64,000 nt of DNA from Methanotrichaceae archaeon (GTDB taxonomy: Archaea > Halobacteriota > Methanosarcinia > Methanotrichales > Methanotrichaceae): positions 1 through 64,000 of the forward strand of contig JABLXE010000010.1 of NCBI GenBank assembly GCA_013178225.1, read 5' to 3'. Positions 2,768 to 10,596 of this stretch are shown here, in pieces; positions within the stretch are counted from its first letter, which is position 1, and each line of letters begins with the position of its first letter. Made by a program: the position numbers and the translations under genes. A model generated the notes under the pieces. It made no database searches, was not told the origin of the DNA, and worked only from the letters and a program-made list of their open reading frames with translations.

Positions 2768-3724
2768 ATGAATTCCATCTACATCAGCCTGCTGGAGTCC
2801 ATAGCCATCATTATGGGATTGATCCTGATCGCGCTTTTCTTGCGAAAACGGGCGATCATCTCCGAAGAGCACAGGCCGCTCTTTGCCCGGCTGGTAACCG
2901 ACTTCTCCCTGCCTGCTCTGATATTCACGGGCCTTGCCAGAGAGAGCTTCGAGGAAGCGGAGCTTGTTGCCGTGGGCATAGTGGCCACAGCTCTCCTGTT
3001 CTGCATGGTACTGGGATGGGCAGCCGGACGTCTCCTCGGGCTGAAGGCCGGCCAGCTCGGAGCCTTCATCATGGTTGCAAGCTTCGGAAGCTCTTCCACG
3101 CTGGGCTACGCCTTGATCAGCCAGGCATTTCCCAACGACCCCACAGCTCTGGCCGAGGCGGTGGTGATAAGCGAGCTGGGTGTCGGAATCCTCATATTTA
3201 CTCTCGGGGTGGCTGTGGCCATATATTTCGGCCAGGGAAGAGGAGGATCGTTTTCCTCCGGGCTGAGGACCTTCCTGAAGTCTCCCATATTTATAAGCCT
3301 GATTTTTGGGCTCGGCTTCTCTCTTCTCGGGCTGCCGCTTACGAATCCTGTCCTCAGCATTCCTCTAAGAGTCCTGGACGTCATAGGCGGCTCTCTTGCC
3401 ATCTTCGTGGCTTTCGCAATCGCGCTCATGCTAAGGCCGATTCCGGTGAGGACGCTCGGGCTTCTGATCGTGGCTGCAGGGTTGATAAAATTGATTGCAA
3501 AGCCCCTGATCGCCTTTTCTATGGCCCGGTTCGAAGACCTTCCCCTGACCTTGACGGAGATATTGTTGATCGAGACCGCCATGCCCTCGGGAACCGTTGC
3601 TGCCGTTCTCGCGGATCGCTACGGCTGTGACGGATCGATCGCCTCGGCGCTGGTCATTGCGACCTACGGCTTGAGCCTGGCCACCATCCCTCTGATCATG
3701 CTCATCACCATCTGCCGTCCCTGA
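2768..3724 (+). CDS. AEC-family (auxin efflux carrier-like) permease
   Basis: A 318-residue, strongly hydrophobic protein with about ten predicted membrane helices in two five-helix halves, typical in length and pattern for the AEC/PIN-like family of bile/arsenite/riboflavin superfamily permeases. Characteristic features are the early 'ITDFSLPAL-like' motif (VTDFSLPALIFTGLA region near residues 42-56) and a C-terminal ETAMPSGTVAAVLA segment. Prokaryotic members export or import small organic acids such as malate; the substrate here is unknown. The ATG at 2768 follows GAGG by about ten bases, and a TATAAG-like box lies near 2712. It is monocistronic, convergent with the DUF2117 cluster. Confidence 0.85.
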   Translation: MNSIYISLLESIAIIMGLILIALFLRKRAIISEEHRPLFARLVTDFSLPALIFTGLARESFEEAELVAVGIVATALLFCMVLGWAAGRLLGLKAGQLGAFIMVASFGSSSTLGYALISQAFPNDPTALAEAVVISELGVGILIFTLGVAVAIYFGQGRGGSFSSGLRTFLKSPIFISLIFGLGFSLLGLPLTNPVLSIPLRVLDVIGGSLAIFVAFAIALMLRPIPVRTLGLLIVAAGLIKLIAKPLIAFSMARFEDLPLTLTEILLIETAMPSGTVAAVLADRYGCDGSIASALVIATYGLSLATIPLIMLITICRP

Positions 3725-3779
3725 GTTGATGGCCGGCTTCCTCGGATTGGCGGTTTTGAGATGCAGTTGGCTATTTGGC

Positions 3780-4862
3780 TTATAACCTATCGATTTGAAC
3801 GATGCTCTGGCCGGCGATATCGGTAATCTTTCGCAGGAGATCATCTGCGGCGATGGACGTCTTATCTCTGCCCTGAAAGATCTCTTCCCTTATTCGCCGC
3901 CCGATGATATCATCGCATCCGGGCTCCACTCTGATCACGGTGCTGCCTGGGTGAATTGTGGTTTTGCAAGAGAGGCCGTCGAGATCCCCGTCCACGATCC
4001 CGATGACCGGAATGCTCAAGCGGGCCAGGATATCTCCGGCAACCGAGGTGGTATCATCGCCCACGGTGACTGCGATACAGGTTCCCTCTGCCACATTGAA
4101 GGCATCCTCAGCACAGTGGTCTATCAAAGCTGCCCCGCTTCCACGGCAGGACACTGAGCCCGGCCTGGCCTCGGTCCGGCGGATCTTTCCGCTGCGGATG
4201 ATGGACTTCTCGAGGTCGAAGGCCGGCAGCTTCTCCAGTCCGTGAGGCTTAAGGGTGGCGCCCTTAATGTTCAAAATGCGGCCATTCGAAGCCTCTATCT
4301 CTACGTTTTCTTCGGTGGCTCTTCCCACCACCACCCCGTTAATGGAAATGGGCTCGCCGGGGACCACTCCAAATAGAAGGCGCTTCGAGATGTCTCCCTC
4401 GCGGCTGTAACTCTCGGAAGAAACGGGCCGCTGAAGCTCCAGTCCCAGATCTGTGGCTGCAGTTGCGGCGAACTCGCCTGCGCCGCCAACCAGCTCGGCC
4501 ACGAATCTGCCTCCGCAGTCGATCTGAATCAGGGGTTTGGTGATACCTGCGATGGCTGCAACCTGCGTTCCAAAGGCCAGCCCGCTCTCTCTGGTCTTGG
4601 CCGAATTGAGGATTACCAGGATATCGGAGCTGTCCTGAAGGAGCAGAAGGGACTGGCTGGGCCTTCGTGCCGGGCTTACCCCGATCAGATCTCCTAAATC
4701 GGCATCGATCAGGGCCACCCGGCCCATGGTGCCGCCCAGAAGTGCCGTGACCTCTCCGAACCTTTGCAGGTAATTAAGAAGCTTGAGGGCTGCCCCGGAG
4801 TCGATCACCTCCGGGCCGTGTACCACGACTCCTATCTTAACCGCCGGATTCCAGGTTCTCAT
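3780..4862 (-). CDS. DUF2117 family protein
   Basis: A 360-residue soluble protein that I recognise as DUF2117, a family I associate with methanogens and for which I know no function. The N-terminal Rossmann-like strand reads KIGVVVHGPEVIDSG, and the rest alternates strands and helices with several glycine-rich turns. It is the last gene of the minus-strand cluster, and its start codon overlaps the 3' end of the DUF2098 gene by about 26 bases, so the two are probably co-translated. The start was taken as the ATG at 4862; initiation a few codons later cannot be excluded. No catalytic motif stands out. Biochemical role unknown. Confidence 0.8.
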   Translation of the reverse strand: MRTWNPAVKIGVVVHGPEVIDSGAALKLLNYLQRFGEVTALLGGTMGRVALIDADLGDLIGVSPARRPSQSLLLLQDSSDILVILNSAKTRESGLAFGTQVAAIAGITKPLIQIDCGGRFVAELVGGAGEFAATAATDLGLELQRPVSSESYSREGDISKRLLFGVVPGEPISINGVVVGRATEENVEIEASNGRILNIKGATLKPHGLEKLPAFDLEKSIIRSGKIRRTEARPGSVSCRGSGAALIDHCAEDAFNVAEGTCIAVTVGDDTTSVAGDILARLSIPVIGIVDGDLDGLSCKTTIHPGSTVIRVEPGCDDIIGRRIREEIFQGRDKTSIAADDLLRKITDIAGQSIVQIDRL

Positions 4863-5115
4863 CCTGCATTCTGACTTCCTTCATCATTTCCTGCTGGGCT
4901 TTCAGGCGCTCCTGGATCTGCTCGATGCTCATTCCTTCCAGCTCTCTTCTCTCCGGAGCGTGTTCGATCGGCTCAAGGGCGTCCAGCCTGTAATAGAGTT
5001 CTGTGGAGTCCAGAAATGCCCACTTTTCTCCATCCTCTTCTTTTAAGACCTTCACTTTTCCAATAGTGCCCGTGCCCTTGTACCTGACCAGACTTCCTTC
5101 TGATATCTCCACCAA
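4837..5115 (-). CDS. DUF2098 family small beta protein
   Basis: A 92-residue protein matching DUF2098, a short family I associate with methanogens. The first half has the feel of a small SH3-like barrel (VRYKGTGTIGKV, then WAFLDSTELYYRLDALEPI). The second half is a charged, probably helical tail rich in Glu, Gln and Met. It lies between a 150-residue unknown protein and DUF2117 with near-zero spacing, indicating one transcript. A binding or scaffold role is plausible from the fold guess but nothing in the sequence gives a substrate. Confidence 0.78.
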   Translation of the reverse strand: MVEISEGSLVRYKGTGTIGKVKVLKEEDGEKWAFLDSTELYYRLDALEPIEHAPERRELEGMSIEQIQERLKAQQEMMKEVRMQDENLESGG

Positions 5116-5125
5116 CGTAAATCAC

Positions 5126-5578
5126 CTATAATCTGTCGATTCTTACCCTGCCCTGAAATCCCTCGACTGCCGCCCCCTGATCCAAGCCCGAGATTGTCAG
5201 GTCGTGAAATTCCTCTGATCCGCACAGCACTTCCTGTTCCGGATGGGTGCCGGGCTCTATCCGGCAGGAGAGGCGGGTTCTGGGGCCGATTGAGACTACG
5301 GTCTTCAGCCGGGGAGAGGCGGGGTGGCCTTTAGGAAGAACGATTAAGGGGGAGCCCAGCTCGCGGATCTGATAAATGGTGCATTTCAGGCCGCGGATAA
5401 CTTTTTCCCCGGGTTGAAATGAAGAGGCTACGATCAGATCCTCGGGCTCGGTGAACAGAACCACTTCCTCGGTCTCTTTTTCCAGATAAAAATAATTGCC
5501 AAGGGTCTTGGCAATGGCTACGGTGCCGCATTCTCCCAGGAGGAGCGCGACTTCATCACCGGCAAAGGAGATGCGCAT
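5126..5578 (-). CDS. Conserved-context hypothetical protein, beta-rich (150 aa)
   Basis: I do not recognise this 150-residue protein. It starts MRISFAGDEVALLLGECGTV and looks mostly beta-stranded with glycine and proline turns, without membrane segments, signal peptide or a conserved metal motif; cysteines at about residues 17, 47, 101 and 119 are not arranged as a zinc knuckle. It is ten bases upstream of the DUF2098 gene and six bases downstream of the small zinc-ribbon gene, so it is a middle member of this minus-strand operon. It is probably a soluble partner of those proteins, which is inference from context only. Confidence 0.65.
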   Translation of the reverse strand: MRISFAGDEVALLLGECGTVAIAKTLGNYFYLEKETEEVVLFTEPEDLIVASSFQPGEKVIRGLKCTIYQIRELGSPLIVLPKGHPASPRLKTVVSIGPRTRLSCRIEPGTHPEQEVLCGSEEFHDLTISGLDQGAAVEGFQGRVRIDRL

Positions 5579-5584
5579 GACATT

Positions 5585-5737
5585 TCAGGCTGGCTTTACG
5601 TTCCTGGACTTGCAGGAGGGACACATGGGACGCCTGCCCATAGCCTTAAACCTGTTTTTGCAGTCCAGGCACTCGAAGTCCTTGGCCGCTATGGATTCAA
5701 TATCTCCCACGTCCGGGCCGCCGCCGACTGTACACAT
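5585..5737 (-). CDS. Small zinc-ribbon protein (50 aa)
   Basis: A 50-residue protein too short for usual ORF cut-offs. It carries two CxxC knuckles, CLDC near residue 23 and CPSC near residue 39, spaced 13 residues apart, which forms a single rubredoxin/zinc-ribbon-type metal site. The tail ends in KSRNVKPA, and basic residues around the knuckles suggest nucleic-acid or protein contact. The ATG at 5737 is preceded by a GGTGAA-like Shine-Dalgarno, and the stop is six bases before the next gene start, so it belongs to the operon. Similar stand-alone ribbons occur in methanogens, but no function is known to me. Confidence 0.8.
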   Translation of the reverse strand: MCTVGGGPDVGDIESIAAKDFECLDCKNRFKAMGRRPMCPSCKSRNVKPA

Positions 5738-5800
5738 GATGATTCACCTCTATCATTTTGTATTGCACATCTGGATATTTAAATCAGGCGGACATTGCCT

Positions 5801-6361
5801 TTATGATACTGCAGCTATACGCTCCAAAAGGGCCTTGATGAATCTCTGCAATTGAGCCAGGTCGCCATCGTTGCAGATTCTGATATCCGCTTCGTTGATC
5901 AGCTCATTCATTCCCCAGCCCAGCTCGCGGGAGTCCCGGTTTGACAGCACAGATTCGGCATTCGACCCTTCTTTAGCATCATCCGCCCTTCCCCGGGCAA
6001 TTACCCTCTGCAGACGGGCTTCCGGCGGCGTCCACACCTCGACCAGCACGAACTGCTGAGAATGGGCCCGGAAGAAATCGGCCTCGGCCTTGGAGCGCAG
6101 TCCGTCTATCACCGCCAGCTCTTTTCCGGTTTTGGCAGCCGAGTCCAGGGTTCTCCTGGCCACCACGTCGGGCCCTTCCCCGGCTCTGAGCATGTTTCCC
6201 ACCCGCCCTAGGTTTTCGTCAGTAGCAGATAGTCCCAACCTGGCGGCTTCGCTGCGGATGACGTCTCCCATCACCACCACGGCCAGGCCCATGTCTCTTG
6301 CCACCCTGGAGGCCTCGCTCTTCCCCGATCCCGGCATGCCAACGAAACCTATCAGCTTCAA
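5801..6361 (-). CDS. UPF0200 P-loop kinase-like protein (dephospho-CoA kinase-related)
   Basis: A P-loop NTPase of the archaeal UPF0200 group, distantly related to dephospho-CoA and adenylate kinases. The Walker A motif GMPGSGKS sits at the very N-terminus after an LIGFV strand, and a basic lid-like stretch (ARLQRVIARGR) is near the middle, as in small-molecule kinases. The frame stays open to TTG 6385, but an AGGAGA sequence inside that extension lies nine bases before TTG 6361, so I chose 6361 (186 residues). The substrate is not established. Encoded between the radical-SAM gene and the zinc-ribbon gene on the minus strand. Confidence 0.78.
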   Translation of the reverse strand: MKLIGFVGMPGSGKSEASRVARDMGLAVVVMGDVIRSEAARLGLSATDENLGRVGNMLRAGEGPDVVARRTLDSAAKTGKELAVIDGLRSKAEADFFRAHSQQFVLVEVWTPPEARLQRVIARGRADDAKEGSNAESVLSNRDSRELGWGMNELINEADIRICNDGDLAQLQRFIKALLERIAAVS

Positions 6362-6419
6362 TTTTTTCGTCTCCTGAGTTCCCAAGTTTCAAGGCCAAAA
6401 AGGGGCCTCGGAGCCATTT

Positions 6420-7220
6420 CTACTTTTCCCATTTCGTGACCGGCAAGCCTCTGACGGCAACGGGCACCAGATCTGCTAATAATTCCGACATCCGTTTTAG
6501 GTCATCTAACGGAACCGGGCGGAACTCCATCTCCCTGGGCCGTCCCTGCTGCAGCACCAAATTTTGCAGGCCGTGCCCCGGATGGGACTGAAGGGCCGAA
6601 GAGAGATCTGTGGCGATCTCTTTCACCTCTGCGGCAGCAGGAGACGCGGGAAAGACGGTCACCCGTATCTCCAGGGACACGCCGGATGCCAGAGCCGCCT
6701 CCAGGCTCTCCCAGACTTTCAGGCAAACGTCTTTTCGTCCGGTGGCCCTGGCATAATCCTCTTCTCGCAAGGTGGATTTGATATCCAAAAAGAGCTTATC
6801 CAGCAGGCCCTCGTCTAATAATTCTTTTAGGCGCTCCGGATAGTACCCGCAGGTCTCCACTCCTGTCTGGAGGTTCAGGCTTTTGGCCAGGCGGAGCAGG
6901 GCTCTGGATGCCTCCGGCTGCATGAGGGGCTCGCCGCCTGAGAGGACCAGGGCGCTTACCAGCGGCTTTGCAGATGCCTGGTCTGCAGCCTCTTCGATAG
7001 TTATCTGGCCCGGTTGAAGGTTCAGGCCGGTTCCTCTTATGATATGCCGCAAGTCTCTGGAAAGGGCCGGGAACTCGACCGGGCTCTGGCCGGCCTGAAG
7101 CTCGAAGTTATGACAGAACGGGCAGCGAAGGGGGCAGCCTCTCAAGAACACCACCGTGCAGGCGCGGCCGGTCCAGTCCACAGTTGACAGCGGAATCGTT
7201 CCGCCCAGGTTGACCTTCAT
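6420..7220 (-). CDS. Radical-SAM activating enzyme, anaerobic RNR activase (NrdG)-like
   Basis: A 266-residue radical SAM protein. The iron-sulfur cysteines are C29, C33 and C36 (RGCPLRCPFCHNF), the C-x3-C-x2-C signature, followed by a GGEP motif (SGGEPLMQP). The short N-terminal lead-in (GTIPLSTVDWTGR) resembles the activases of anaerobic ribonucleotide reductase and pyruvate formate-lyase. By family it would generate a glycyl radical on a partner enzyme; no such partner is encoded in this window. Its ATG overlaps the stop of the upstream coiled-coil gene in an ATGA, indicating translational coupling. A different glycyl-radical or modification target remains possible. Confidence 0.85.
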   Translation of the reverse strand: MKVNLGGTIPLSTVDWTGRACTVVFLRGCPLRCPFCHNFELQAGQSPVEFPALSRDLRHIIRGTGLNLQPGQITIEEAADQASAKPLVSALVLSGGEPLMQPEASRALLRLAKSLNLQTGVETCGYYPERLKELLDEGLLDKLFLDIKSTLREEDYARATGRKDVCLKVWESLEAALASGVSLEIRVTVFPASPAAAEVKEIATDLSSALQSHPGHGLQNLVLQQGRPREMEFRPVPLDDLKRMSELLADLVPVAVRGLPVTKWEK

Positions 7221-8500
7221 TCTCGGCTCGCGTCTGCCTGAATCTCAATCTTCACCGGATGACCGGCGATCTTCTCCATCCTCTCTTGAAGCTCGGCCTG
7301 GTGCTGGGAAAGGCTGCTTTCCAGTGCTGCCAGGCTGTCCCGGCTCTGCAATAGCTCCGGCTCCAGCCTGCGAATCTCCCGCCGGTGACTTGCCAGATCG
7401 TCTTTGCACTGCCGGAGACCTTTGCCGGCTTCCTCCAGTTGCACCTTCAGCAGGCCGGCCTGAGAATTAATCTCGCGGTGACGCGATTTCAGCTTCTGAA
7501 GAGTTTTATCCTGAATCAGGTGGTCCAGGTGCTGCAGGGTCTTCTCCTTCTTGCGGTCCTTGAGGCCCAGGACGGCCAGGTTCTGACGCAGCTCCTGCAG
7601 AGGTTCGGCCACATCCTGATCAAGCGCCTCCAGTGGGGTGCGGGAAAGCTGTTCCAGCCTCTGCCGGTACTGAAGGCTCAGCCTATCGCAGGCCCCCTGC
7701 TTCACTATCCTGTCCAGGGCTTTGGAGAGCGGAGCTACCAGATCGGTCATCTGGGCCTCGATCTGCCGCATCTCGTCGTTCTTCTGGTCCAGGAGCTGCT
7801 CCAGCTCACGAGACCTGCGACCGGCATCGCTCCTCTCCAGCTTCTGCTGGCCGGCGTCCAGACGGGCCTCGGCCTCTCGCAGCTGTGCAAGCCTCTCTTC
7901 GGCCTTTGCCGTCTCAGCGGACAGATCGGATATCTGCGCCGTCTCCTGCCGGAGCTTGGCCGCCAGGTCGCGGCAGAACCAGATCTCCTCTCTCTCCCGG
8001 CGTTTGCCTGCCGTCAGCTCCTCCAGCTCGACCAGCAGACGGCTCAGCCGGTTGAAGTCGCCGTTGATCTTCTCCGACTCGGCCGGAAATACGGCAGCCA
8101 TGTACCTCTGGGCGCGGCCGAACTTGGAAACGGCGGTGCCGAGGCCCTTTACCGCCGTCCAGTGGTACTGGGTGGCAGATTCGATGTCAGTCTTCTCCGG
8201 AGGAGCTATCTTTCTGGCCAGGGTGCCGATGTGTTTTAAGACCTCGCTCCTGGCGGCGAGCCCGGCCTTGAGCAGTCGCGGAGGTGTGTTCTCCTGCGGC
8301 TGGGCAAAGGAGAGCGATTCGAGATCCCTTTCCAGGTCCTGCGCAATTCTGTCCATCTCGCGGTAGATCTCCTTCAGCCTCTTCTCGAGATCGGGGTCCT
8401 GCGTCTGCCGGTCCAGCCAGGCATCCAGATCGGAGAGCTGCAGGCTGTGGTTCGAATCGTTCTCGCTCGGTCTCTGAAATATCTTCTTTATCCAGTTCAG
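7217..8500 (-). CDS. Long coiled-coil protein with probable CTG start, coupled to hel308
   Basis: A 427-residue, highly charged protein dominated by heptad-like helix (about residues 100-400), with long runs of Glu, Gln, Arg and Leu, as in SMC-arm or tropomyosin-like proteins. No ATPase motif is visible. The first in-frame ATG is at 8356, but the frame is open further upstream and reads NWIKKIFQRPSEN directly from a CTG at 8500. That CTG overlaps the Hel308 stop as CTGA and is preceded by AGGAGG seven bases away, the geometry of a coupled restart. I take CTG 8500 as the start. The gene lies between a repair helicase and a radical-SAM gene; a structural role in DNA transactions is only a guess. 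Confidence 0.75.
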   Translation of the reverse strand: MNWIKKIFQRPSENDSNHSLQLSDLDAWLDRQTQDPDLEKRLKEIYREMDRIAQDLERDLESLSFAQPQENTPPRLLKAGLAARSEVLKHIGTLARKIAPPEKTDIESATQYHWTAVKGLGTAVSKFGRAQRYMAAVFPAESEKINGDFNRLSRLLVELEELTAGKRREREEIWFCRDLAAKLRQETAQISDLSAETAKAEERLAQLREAEARLDAGQQKLERSDAGRRSRELEQLLDQKNDEMRQIEAQMTDLVAPLSKALDRIVKQGACDRLSLQYRQRLEQLSRTPLEALDQDVAEPLQELRQNLAVLGLKDRKKEKTLQHLDHLIQDKTLQKLKSRHREINSQAGLLKVQLEEAGKGLRQCKDDLASHRREIRRLEPELLQSRDSLAALESSLSQHQAELQERMEKIAGHPVKIEIQADASRE

Positions 8501-10596
8501 GGTAGGGCCTCCTGGGCTTTGAGCTGGCCGAAAACTTTCTCAGCGACCTTCGGTCCTATCAGCCTGGACAGCTCCTCCAGAGGTGTGCAGGAGAGCTTTG
8601 ACAGGCTGGTGTAACCCGCGGCGTAGAGCTTCCTGGCCCTGGCTCTTCCTATTCCCTTCAGCTCCAGGAGCGCCAGCAGGTCGGGTCCCGCTCCATAGTG
8701 CAGCCGCTGGGATAGCTGCTCGGCCCTGTAGTTCAGACCCAGCTCCTGGTGCTTGGATATCTCGGACAGAGAATGCATGAGCCACTCGGCGGTCTCGGCC
8801 AGGCGTCGAATGTCTCCGGGGCCTATCCGGTATCTGTCGCTGATCTGCTCCTCTTTGGTCTCCGAGATCCAGTCCATGAGCATGGCTGAGGTCTTGGCCT
8901 GGCGGAGCAGGAAGTCGTAGTTGTCTTCCTGGCTGAGTTCCTCGTAGTGCTCATCGATGAAGGACTCGATCCAGTGGTCTGAGGCGTTCACATAGAGGGT
9001 GTCCATGTCCGGGGTCATGGTGATTGTATGCAGAAGAGCCAGGTCGCTGGGGCTCTTTCTGGACTTGAGGCTCTCGATCATGATGATGGCGCTCAGCGGA
9101 TCGATGTACAGCCTGGAGACCAGAGATCCGAGCCGGGTCGGCCTGAGGTCATCCTCAGGCCCCTCCACGATCATTCCGTTGTCGGCCAGGAACTGCAGCA
9201 CCCTTTCCAGGGTGATGTCCAGACGCCAGGGGTCCTGCTGGTGAGCGAAGAACGTGGTCTCAATGAACTCCTTCAGCCCTTTTTCGCTGCTGACAAAGCC
9301 CGCGCTGATGGTGGAGAGGATGTGGGTCCTAAGAGCGCTCTCGCTGGCCAGCTTCGACCAGATCTCCTCAGGGGAGCCGAAGATGTAGCCCTCCATCAGC
9401 TCCTTCATCTCCGAGCTGGACTTGGCCATGAGAAACGACTCGCCGTGAGGGTCCAGCCCCGGCCTTCCGGCCCGGCCGGCCATCTGGCGGTACTCGATCA
9501 CCGGGATCGGGACCATGCCCGAGCCATATTCGTAGCGCTTGTAGCTTTTTATCAGCACCCTTCTGGCTGGAAGGTTCAGGCCGGCGGCAAGCGTGGGAGT
9601 GCTGGCGATGACCCTTATCTTGTTGTCACGAAAGCCCTGCTCCACCAGGGATCTCTGCTCGGCCAGCAGGCCGGCGTGATGAAAGGCCACTCCCCGGGAG
9701 ACGCAGGATGCAAGCCGCCGGCAGGTCTCGCTCTCGCCGGTGGCGAGCACCTTTTCCGAGAGCGCCTTCTGCTCTGGGCCCTGCAGCGACAGCTCTGCGG
9801 AAAGCTTCACCGCCGTGCTCTCGGCGTTGCGTCTGCTGTTCTCGAAGACCAGGATCTGGGCCGATTGGGATAGTGTGTCTTTGACCAGCGATAGAGCCTC
9901 ATCTTTTCCGCCCTGAAGCGGTGCCTCGCCATCGGCAAAGACCATCTTTCCGAGGCACAGCACCCCCTCCCGGAGCTTGATGGGCCGCCAGTCGCTTGAC
10001 ACCAGCTCAGCTTTCAGCCAGTCGGCGATCTCGGCCCCGTTGGCGACGGTAGCGGAAAGACCAATGACCTGCATGTGAGGGTTGAGCCTGATCAGCTTGG
10101 TCATGGTCATCTCCAGGGTGGGTCCGCGGCTGGGCTCGTTTAGGAGGTGAATCTCGTCCACCACCAGGACGGCCAGGTCTCTTACCCAGCTGGCTCCGTT
10201 TCTCATCAGGGAGTCGGCCTTCTCCGAGGTGGCGATTATGATCTGGTTTCTCCCCAGCCGCTCATCTTTTTTGTCGAAGTCTCCGGTGCTGATGCCCACC
10301 TCGACTCCCAGCTTTTTAAACCGCCGGAAGGACTCGAACTTCTCCGAGGCCAGGGCGCGCAGGGGCACGATGTAGAGGCAGCGCTCGCCTTGAAGAGCGG
10401 CCCGGAGCATGGCCAGCTCGGCTAAAAGGGTCTTTCCGCTGGCGGTTGGCATGGCCAGGAGCATGTTCTTCCCTTCCAGGAGCCCCCGTTCTACCGCCTC
10501 GGCCTGGGGAGGATAAAGCTCCTTGTAGCCCCGTTTTTGGTATTCTTCGATGGCCTCGGGAGGAAGCCAGGTCTTCAGATCGCTTATCTCCAGCAT
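8497..10596 (-). CDS. hel308: ATP-dependent DNA helicase Hel308
   Basis: A 699-residue superfamily 2 Ski2-like helicase. Seen in order are the Q motif (Q31), Walker A PTASGKT (residues 50-56), the DEIH Walker B box (147-150), motif III SAT, motif VI QMAGRAGRPG and a C-terminal helix-hairpin-helix (LKGIGRARARKLYAAG), followed by the family's winged-helix/ratchet ending. Length fits Hel308. In archaea it unwinds lagging strands at stalled forks and assists recombination repair. It opens the minus-strand cluster and shares a divergent promoter region with dapL. GAGGACC precedes the ATG. The stop overlaps the start of the coiled-coil gene. Confidence 0.96.
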   Translation of the reverse strand: MLEISDLKTWLPPEAIEEYQKRGYKELYPPQAEAVERGLLEGKNMLLAMPTASGKTLLAELAMLRAALQGERCLYIVPLRALASEKFESFRRFKKLGVEVGISTGDFDKKDERLGRNQIIIATSEKADSLMRNGASWVRDLAVLVVDEIHLLNEPSRGPTLEMTMTKLIRLNPHMQVIGLSATVANGAEIADWLKAELVSSDWRPIKLREGVLCLGKMVFADGEAPLQGGKDEALSLVKDTLSQSAQILVFENSRRNAESTAVKLSAELSLQGPEQKALSEKVLATGESETCRRLASCVSRGVAFHHAGLLAEQRSLVEQGFRDNKIRVIASTPTLAAGLNLPARRVLIKSYKRYEYGSGMVPIPVIEYRQMAGRAGRPGLDPHGESFLMAKSSSEMKELMEGYIFGSPEEIWSKLASESALRTHILSTISAGFVSSEKGLKEFIETTFFAHQQDPWRLDITLERVLQFLADNGMIVEGPEDDLRPTRLGSLVSRLYIDPLSAIIMIESLKSRKSPSDLALLHTITMTPDMDTLYVNASDHWIESFIDEHYEELSQEDNYDFLLRQAKTSAMLMDWISETKEEQISDRYRIGPGDIRRLAETAEWLMHSLSEISKHQELGLNYRAEQLSQRLHYGAGPDLLALLELKGIGRARARKLYAAGYTSLSKLSCTPLEELSRLIGPKVAEKVFGQLKAQEALP

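What the first reader, a model, noticed from the sequence alone, without database searches (positions are those of the whole stretch)
2768..10596. Long minus-strand cluster linking Hel308 to poorly known methanogen proteins
Hel308, a 427-residue coiled-coil protein and a radical-SAM activase are chained by CTGA and ATGA overlaps. UPF0200, a 50-residue zinc ribbon, an unknown beta protein, DUF2098 and DUF2117 follow closely. Such coupling suggests a shared task around DNA maintenance or enzyme activation, but the activase has no glycyl-radical partner nearby.
Basis: inference. Interest (0 to 1): 0.5.

Follow-up and report, generated by a model that had tools for sequence, protein, structure and literature searches.

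The report
Composite methanogen gene cluster, conserved non-AUG start
The eight-gene row is real, but it is two older gene groups placed side by side, one of them probably tied to switching on the methane-making enzyme, with a widespread unknown coiled-coil gene inserted in some genera that starts at an unusual, long-conserved weak start codon.

Summary
The minus-strand cluster is real (3780-10596; 2768-3724 is a plus-strand transporter). It is not one operon with one task. In Methanotrichaceae two cassettes adjoin: A, Hel308-NrdG2-UPF0200; B, zinc ribbon-beta protein-DUF2098-DUF2117. Genera g3, g7 and g10 have both joined without the coiled-coil gene (CC); g4 and g8 have them apart. CC sits between Hel308 and NrdG2 only in g1, g5, g9 and g11, probably after one insertion. 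Outside the family CC, Hel308 and NrdG2 are not neighbours in the loci examined.

The activase is NrdG2. Its likely partner NrdD is on another contig; in 9 of 10 Methanosarcinaceae-type genomes nrdD is beside the orthologue. DUF2098 matches the subunit that binds McrC in the solved MCR-activation complex, so cassette B is best read as MCR-activation accessories.

CC is a Pfam-less family spread over the phylum, predicted as amphipathic tail, helical bundle, coiled-coil arm and conserved tip. It starts with TTG, GTG or (here) CTG in 53 of 78 genomes of the class; four control genes start with ATG in 71 of 72 cases outside Methanotrichaceae. CC's function and the reason for the weak start are inferred.

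The parts
8497..10596 (-). Hel308 DNA helicase, 699 aa, ATG start
   Evidence: NF002654 946.9 bits (cut-off 887); solved Hel308 2p6r E 3e-187
7217..8500 (-). CC: coiled-coil protein, 427 aa, CTG start overlapping the Hel308 stop (CTGA)
   Evidence: homologues in 171 of 199 genomes of the class; start column aligned; model pLDDT 89.4
8508..8513 (-). Shine-Dalgarno AGGAGG, 7 nt before the CTG start of CC, inside the end of hel308
   Evidence: sequence
6420..7220 (-). NrdG2-type radical-SAM activase, 266 aa, ATGA overlap with CC
   Evidence: TIGR02495 145.4 bits over cut-off 131.15; only protein over the cut-off in the genome
5801..6385 (-). UPF0200 P-loop kinase-like protein, 194 aa (TTG start)
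   Evidence: AAA_17; UPF0200 SSO1041 3h0k E 2e-24
5585..5737 (-). 50-aa zinc-ribbon protein (ZnR)
   Evidence: zinc-ribbon matches under their cut-offs; adjacent to BETA in loci of f1, f3, f5 and f7
5126..5578 (-). BETA: 150-aa protein, no Pfam or NCBIfam match
   Evidence: 77 of 119 genomes of the class
4837..5115 (-). DUF2098 protein, 92 aa (TTG start)
   Evidence: PF09871 92.3 bits; 8s7v/9h1l DUF2098 chain E 7e-8
3780..4862 (-). DUF2117 protein, 360 aa, overlapping DUF2098 by 26 nt
   Evidence: PF09890 369 bits; overlap

Best explanation
The stretch is a family-specific composite, not one functional operon. Cassette A (Hel308, NrdG2, UPF0200) serves DNA repair and deoxynucleotide supply: NrdG2 makes the glycyl radical on NrdD, which is encoded elsewhere in the genome. 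Cassette B (zinc ribbon, BETA, DUF2098, DUF2117) is an accessory set for methyl-coenzyme M reductase: DUF2098 docks on a loop of McrC during ATP-driven activation, and the three linked proteins probably help in or regulate that process. The coiled-coil gene CC came to lie inside cassette A once, in one clade of Methanotrichaceae; its closeness to Hel308 is incidental. CC is most likely a membrane-tethered adaptor (cationic amphipathic N-terminal helix, helical bundle, coiled-coil arm, conserved tip) kept at low level by a conserved weak start codon. Shown: gene order, families, the conserved start column, DUF2098 homology. Inferred: co-transcription, NrdG2 acting on NrdD, the role of UPF0200, cassette B's role beyond DUF2098, direction of the CC move, membrane binding, low expression.
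For: Gene orders in 10 other Methanotrichaceae genera: A and B joined without CC in g3, g7, g10 (g6 as far as BETA); apart in g4, g8 and in the one g5 genome checked for B (G027); CC between Hel308 and NrdG2 in g9, g11 and g5 as in the window. In 20 g5 loci Hel308 is upstream in 19 and NrdG2 downstream in 19, the two gaps being contig ends. The Hel308 tree puts the CC-carrying genera g1, g5, g9, g11 plus g7 in one clade, 97/96. nrdD and the NrdG2 orthologue adjoin in 9 of 10 f3 genomes. Cassette B is complete also in one f7 genome (G150); DUF2098-DUF2117 adjoin in 4 of 4 f4 genomes; ZnR-BETA in the one f3 and one f5 genome examined. DUF2098 co-purifies with McrC and is bound by a McrC loop in Methanococcus maripaludis (PMC12176620, passages), and the window protein matches that chain. 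CC model and conservation. CC start codons.
Against: Hel308-NrdG2-UPF0200 stays together, with or without CC, in 9 of the 10 genera compared, so some functional coupling of these three cannot be excluded. In two g2 genomes, however, no Hel308 lies in the 5.8 kb or more fetched upstream of NrdG2. BETA was not found in the g14, g16 and g17 genomes listed, which presumably have MCR (recall), so it cannot be essential to MCR activation. No DUF2098 was detected beside DUF2117 in 8 f3 and 3 f5 loci. DUF2117, BETA and ZnR are not named among the subunits in the passages read. A radical-SAM protein below the NrdG2 cut-off lies about 5 kb from nrdD on C28, and a weak one 1.4 kb from nrdD in G050, so another activase is not excluded. 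The CC tree leaves g11 unresolved from g3 and g10. No experiment bears on CC.
Confidence: 0.6

Rival explanations
1. The whole row is one operon for DNA maintenance; CC is a partner of Hel308, for instance an SMC-like or fork-binding accessory.
For: CTGA and ATGA overlaps; Hel308 upstream of CC in 19 of 20 g5 loci plus g9 and g11; weak coiled-coil matches to SMC and Rad50 models.
Against: In one search, CC has no Hel308 near it in 5 other Methanotrichaceae loci and 27 loci of other families. The window CC matches no ATPase family. The SMC matches lie far below cut-off and fit any coiled coil. Genera without a CC match (g6, g7) keep Hel308 and NrdG2 together.
Confidence: 0.12
2. The cluster has no functional meaning at all: neighbours by chance in compact genomes, all genes independent.
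For: Cassettes A and B are separate in g4, g8 and the g5 genome checked; most links vanish outside the family.
Against: ZnR-BETA, DUF2098-DUF2117 and NrdG2-UPF0200 each recur in at least two families, in several cases with open frames that overlap, which chance alone would hardly keep.
Confidence: 0.2
3. The TTG start of CC is not selected; it is slow drift of a start codon inherited from one ancestor, and the CTG here is one more drift step or a sequence error.
For: As few as 7 changes between TTG and other states are needed on the CC tree, so there are few independent events. LeuRS also seems to keep TTG in several Methanotrichaceae genera. Five f3 genera and all genomes examined of f9, f17, f20, f26, f27 and f28 use ATG. 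In 16 of 52 TTG cases of the class another in-frame start exists upstream. Published work finds start-codon switches rarer than the same changes at fourfold-degenerate sites (PMC5622118, passages).
Against: TTG carriers in different families are separated by long branches, while four control genes show no TTG in 72 cases outside the family. The same paper finds AUG maintained by selection, and UUG-to-AUG switches more frequent at starts than in non-coding DNA.
Confidence: 0.4

Closest known systems
MCR activation complex (McrC, Mmp7, Mmp17, Mmp3, A2, DUF2098) of Methanococcus maripaludis, 8s7v/9h1l, PMC12176620
   Same: DUF2098 is homologous to the solved chain L (E 7e-8)
   Different: ZnR, BETA and DUF2117 are not named in the passages read; whether DUF2098 here binds McrC is untested
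NrdG2 (TIGR02495), activase of anaerobic ribonucleotide reductase NrdD
   Same: over the family cut-off; CxxxCxxC motif seen in the sequence; orthologues beside nrdD in 9 of 10 f3 genomes
   Different: here separated from nrdD and placed near hel308 and UPF0200
Hel308
   Same: full-length match to solved archaeal Hel308 and domain 4
   Different: nothing notable
UPF0200 (SSO1041, 3h0k)
   Same: E 2e-24 over nearly full length
   Different: function of the family unknown to me; kinase activity untested
SMC/Rad50-type coiled-coil proteins
   Same: long antiparallel helical arm in the model; VIA rows include SMC arms
   Different: 427 aa, no ATPase family match, own helical bundle and amphipathic tail; no Foldseek match at E 0.001

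Membership tests
Hel308 | full-length similarity to Hel308 with helicase core, archaeal domain 4 and C-terminal helix-hairpin-helix | tested here: met
NrdG2 (TIGR02495) | score over the curated cut-off | tested here: met
   145.4 against 131.15 bits
NrdG2 (TIGR02495) | an NrdD glycyl-radical partner in the genome | tested here: met
   C28:87706-89586; not adjacent
NrdG2 (TIGR02495) | activation of NrdD | not testable with these tools
   needs an assay
UPF0200 | full-length similarity to a named UPF0200 protein | tested here: met
   3h0k
DUF2098, subunit of the MCR activation complex | PF09871 over cut-off and similarity to the solved subunit | tested here: met
DUF2098, subunit of the MCR activation complex | binding to McrC | not testable with these tools
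   shown only for M. maripaludis
DUF2117 (PF09890) | score over the curated cut-off | tested here: met
   369.4 against 25 bits
SMC/Rad50 (considered for CC) | ABC-type ATPase head | tested here: not met
   no ATPase family in the table for the window CC nor among the 25 families shown for its 27 aligned relatives (57 families matched in all); the model is almost wholly helical
Any solved fold for CC | structural match standing out from generic helical matches | tested here: inconclusive
   best Z about 12 with mixed unrelated helical chains

The most novel reading that the evidence does not exclude
The zinc ribbon, BETA and DUF2117 proteins are unrecognised accessory factors of methyl-coenzyme M reductase activation in Methanosarcinia, working with DUF2098 and McrC; and CC is a new membrane-tethered coiled-coil scaffold of methane-cycling archaea whose conserved non-AUG start is a selected brake on its synthesis.
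Probability: 0.25. Interest if true: 0.65.

Novelty: new member of a known kind. Interest (0 to 1): 0.4.

Why it matters
MCR makes nearly all biological methane and the structure of its activation complex appeared only in 2025 (PMC12176620), so three linked proteins of unknown function are direct candidates to test in Methanosarcina. Separately, a protein family found in about 126 of 294 genomes of the phylum with strong scores (my count of the rows) has no Pfam entry and no known role, and its conserved non-AUG start offers a natural case for testing whether archaea keep weak start codons on purpose.

Tried and rejected
CC as an SMC/Rad50 relative: rejected for lack of any ATPase match in the tables shown; the NCBIfam matches are far below cut-off. 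CC as partner of a conserved neighbour: comparison of genes within 7 kb of CC in 39 loci gave no neighbour group present in more than 8 loci; the group upstream of CC in 5 f4/f5 loci reads as a TrpB-like protein (my reading). Radical-SAM hits near CC in five loci outside f1 (L045, L058, L059, L069, L070; scores 97-107 against 400 or more for the true neighbours) look like a different radical-SAM group; the NrdG2 hits of the four of these genomes that I searched lie elsewhere (G145 was not searched). Fold of CC: no Foldseek match at E 0.001, and the VIA rows are a mix of helical bundles and coiled coils, including toxin chains that I take as chance; single domains of CC were not folded. BETA: model pLDDT 45.6 from three sequences, not searched further; no PDB sequence match under E 0.1. 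DUF2117: no PDB match under E 0.4. PF10006, used first, was a wrong recall for DUF2098. Start-codon control: LeuRS keeping TTG within Methanotrichaceae shows that persistence inside one family is not special, so the claim rests on persistence between families. The Fisher value of 1.6e-10 treats genomes as independent, which they are not; I do not use it as a probability. Literature: searches on conserved UUG starts, Hel308 neighbourhoods, CC-like proteins, DUF2117/DUF2098, Methanothrix start codons and MCR activation listed nothing that I recognised as a description of the CC family or of this cluster; I saw listings, and passages only of PMC5622118, PMC7531240, PMC2643942, PMC12176620 and PMC3226654. 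Rows dropped: L055, a 100-base piece, from the loci; 2 of 140 genomes (G145, G061) with no residue in the CC start column, leaving 138; four f4 LeuRS proteins that could not be aligned, from the controls. The first line of the Shine-Dalgarno count mixes families whose codes begin with f1; read from its list of failures, 32 of 33 true f1 genomes have a Shine-Dalgarno-like core.
Full report
Observation. The minus strand from 10596 to 3780 carries eight genes in the order Hel308, coiled-coil protein (CC), NrdG2 radical-SAM activase, UPF0200, 50-aa zinc ribbon (ZnR), a 150-aa protein without family (BETA), DUF2098 and DUF2117. Hel308 and CC overlap by four bases (CTGA), CC and NrdG2 by four (ATGA), DUF2098 and DUF2117 by 26; the other gaps are 34, 63, 6 and 10 bases. 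Upstream, the gene for LL-diaminopimelate aminotransferase (DapL) runs the other way.

The organism. So f1 is taken as Methanotrichaceae and the window as a separate genus (g1) in it. The other families are given by code only.

The cluster is composite. In seven long loci of g5 (5), g9 and g11 the order is DapL reversed, then Hel308, CC, NrdG2, UPF0200. Among 29 shorter f1 loci, of 20 g5 loci Hel308 is upstream of CC in 19 and NrdG2 downstream in 19, the exceptions being contig ends; the g9 and g11 loci have both; none of 5 g4 and 2 g8 loci has either. But Hel308, NrdG2 and UPF0200 are together without CC in g3, g4, g6, g7, g8 and g10. Cassette B (ZnR, BETA, DUF2098, DUF2117) follows directly in g3, g7, g10, g9 and the window, as far as BETA in g6 and g11, and lies elsewhere in g4, g8 and the one g5 genome checked for it, G027. 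In two g2 genomes NrdG2 and UPF0200 are next to ZnR and BETA, with no Hel308 in the 5.8 kb or more fetched upstream. A Hel308 tree groups g1, g5, g9, g11 and g7 (97/96). As g7 gave no CC match, one insertion with one loss is the simplest account. The tree is small, inner forks are open, and the CC tree does not settle the place of g11.

Outside the family. In one search, 27 CC loci of f3, f4, f5 and f7 show no Hel308 near CC; no neighbour is kept beyond small sets of loci. Hel308, NrdG2 and UPF0200 are not adjacent in the f3, f5 and f7 genomes by coordinates, some hits lying at contig ends; NrdG2 and UPF0200 adjoin in the four f4 genomes (three of them also). DUF2098 and DUF2117 adjoin in 4 of 4 f4 genomes and, with BETA and ZnR, in one f7 genome (G150); ZnR and BETA adjoin in the one f3 and the one f5 genome examined; DUF2098 was not detected near DUF2117 in 8 f3 and 3 f5 loci.

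The activase. It passes the NrdG2 cut-off and is the only protein of this genome to do so. NrdD is on contig C28, and its C-terminal part shows the usual glycyl-radical region and a pair of CxxC motifs by eye. No NrdG2 lies beside it; another radical-SAM protein, far below the cut-off, lies about 5 kb away. Of 26 other genomes 25 have NrdD; in 9 of 10 f3 genomes it lies directly beside the NrdG2 hit, while in f1, f4, f5 and f7 the two are apart. So the missing partner is probably explained by separation of an old nrdD-nrdG2 pair, with activation across the genome.

Cassette B. The DUF2098 protein matches chain L of the MCR activation complex, E 7e-8. In that work DUF2098 co-purified with tagged McrC and is bound by a flexible McrC loop (PMC12176620, passages). 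Earlier profiling lists DUF2098 among proteins agreeing with a profile of 28 methanogens (PMC3226654, passages). DUF2117 is in 23 of 26 genomes and, of 14 control genomes, only in two methanogens. BETA is in 77 of 119 genomes of the class, and is missing from the g14, g16 and g17 genomes listed, from six other listed genomes and from 22 that the call does not list, so it cannot be a universal need. Guilt by association makes ZnR, BETA and DUF2117 candidates for MCR activation; nothing here proves it.

The coiled-coil family. A single-sequence search finds CC in 171 of 199 genomes of the class. A profile finds matches in 158 of 294 genomes of the phylum; by my count of the rows 126 of these are below E 1e-10, and the other 32, at E 1e-6 to 1e-3, are mostly short matches in other frames and likely generic coiled coils. 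CC is missing from the g2 genomes and from six of seven g16 genomes listed; the seventh, G061, has a copy with an in-frame TAG. No Pfam family is shared by more than 9 of 28 members, and those matches are weak. The AlphaFold2 model (28 sequences, mean pLDDT 89.4, pTM 0.61) has a low-confidence N-terminal stretch, a helical bundle up to about residue 168, a long helical arm going out and back, and short strands near both ends. Over 54 genera, conservation is highest in the first 30 residues, at 76-90, 121-150 and 256-270, and lowest along the arms. The first 11 residues have a mean hydrophobic moment of 0.52, about one standard deviation over shuffles, and the first 12 a mean net charge of +2.5 (138 sequences): this suggests membrane binding but is not strong.

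The start codon. In the alignment of whole frames the first conserved column holds mostly L, V or M while the residues before it are not conserved. Of 138 sequences, with ATG taken where one lies within a few codons, 49 start with TTG, 27 GTG, 57 ATG, 1 CTG (the window) and 4 are ambiguous; by genus, ties broken arbitrarily, 16 TTG, 11 GTG, 25 ATG, 1 CTG and 1 ambiguous of 54. Within the class this is 53 non-AUG of 78 genomes (49 TTG, 3 GTG, 1 CTG), 21 ATG and 4 ambiguous (my sum). Of 52 class members with TTG in the column, 36 have no other ATG, GTG or TTG in frame upstream. A Shine-Dalgarno-like core precedes the codon in 32 of 33 f1 genomes and 0 of 6 f4 genomes. In 19 genomes outside f1, CC starts with TTG in 12 (four of which have other in-frame starts upstream), ATG in 5, and is ambiguous in 2; Hel308, UPF0200, LeuRS and NrdG2 start with ATG in 71 of 72 cases and one is unresolved (my reading). 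UPF0200 and LeuRS were chosen as controls because they start with TTG in the window; LeuRS keeps TTG in several Methanotrichaceae genera, so persistence inside a family is not special. On the CC tree the TTG state needs at least 7 changes. Genome-scale work finds AUG starts maintained by selection, with UUG-to-AUG switches more frequent at starts than in non-coding DNA but rarer than at fourfold-degenerate sites (PMC5622118, passages). A long-kept UUG is therefore against the general trend, but drift is not excluded.

Verdict. The inference of one shared task fails its own test for CC and Hel308. The useful leads are different ones: cassette B as possible MCR-activation accessories, and an unnamed protein family with a conserved weak start codon.

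Noticed in passing
   Followed up: yes
L156 (G061) and L069 (G145): CC appears broken: in-frame TAG in a g16 genome whose listed congeners lack the gene, and a split frame in a g14 genome. In a lineage that reads TAG as pyrrolysine the TAG could also be read through; not tested.
   Followed up: no
G000:C28, L386 1944-2846 and 7695-9980: nrdD has no NrdG2 beside it, but a different radical-SAM protein lies about 5 kb away; a weak radical-SAM hit is also 1.4 kb from nrdD in G050.
   Followed up: partly
L033, 11278-12395 (G052): The DUF2117 gene is split into two frames in this metagenome contig; could be a sequencing error.
   Followed up: no
L366 (G150, family f7): ZnR, BETA, DUF2098 and DUF2117 lie in one tight row in a distant family, the best sign that cassette B is old.
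   Followed up: partly
f4 loci such as L056, L058 upstream of CC: No Shine-Dalgarno-like core before the TTG start in 6 of 6 f4 genomes; possibly leaderless transcripts starting with UUG.
   Followed up: no
window 11895 and 6385: LeuRS and UPF0200 genes also appear to start with TTG here; LeuRS keeps TTG in several Methanotrichaceae genera but not in the other families aligned.
   Followed up: partly
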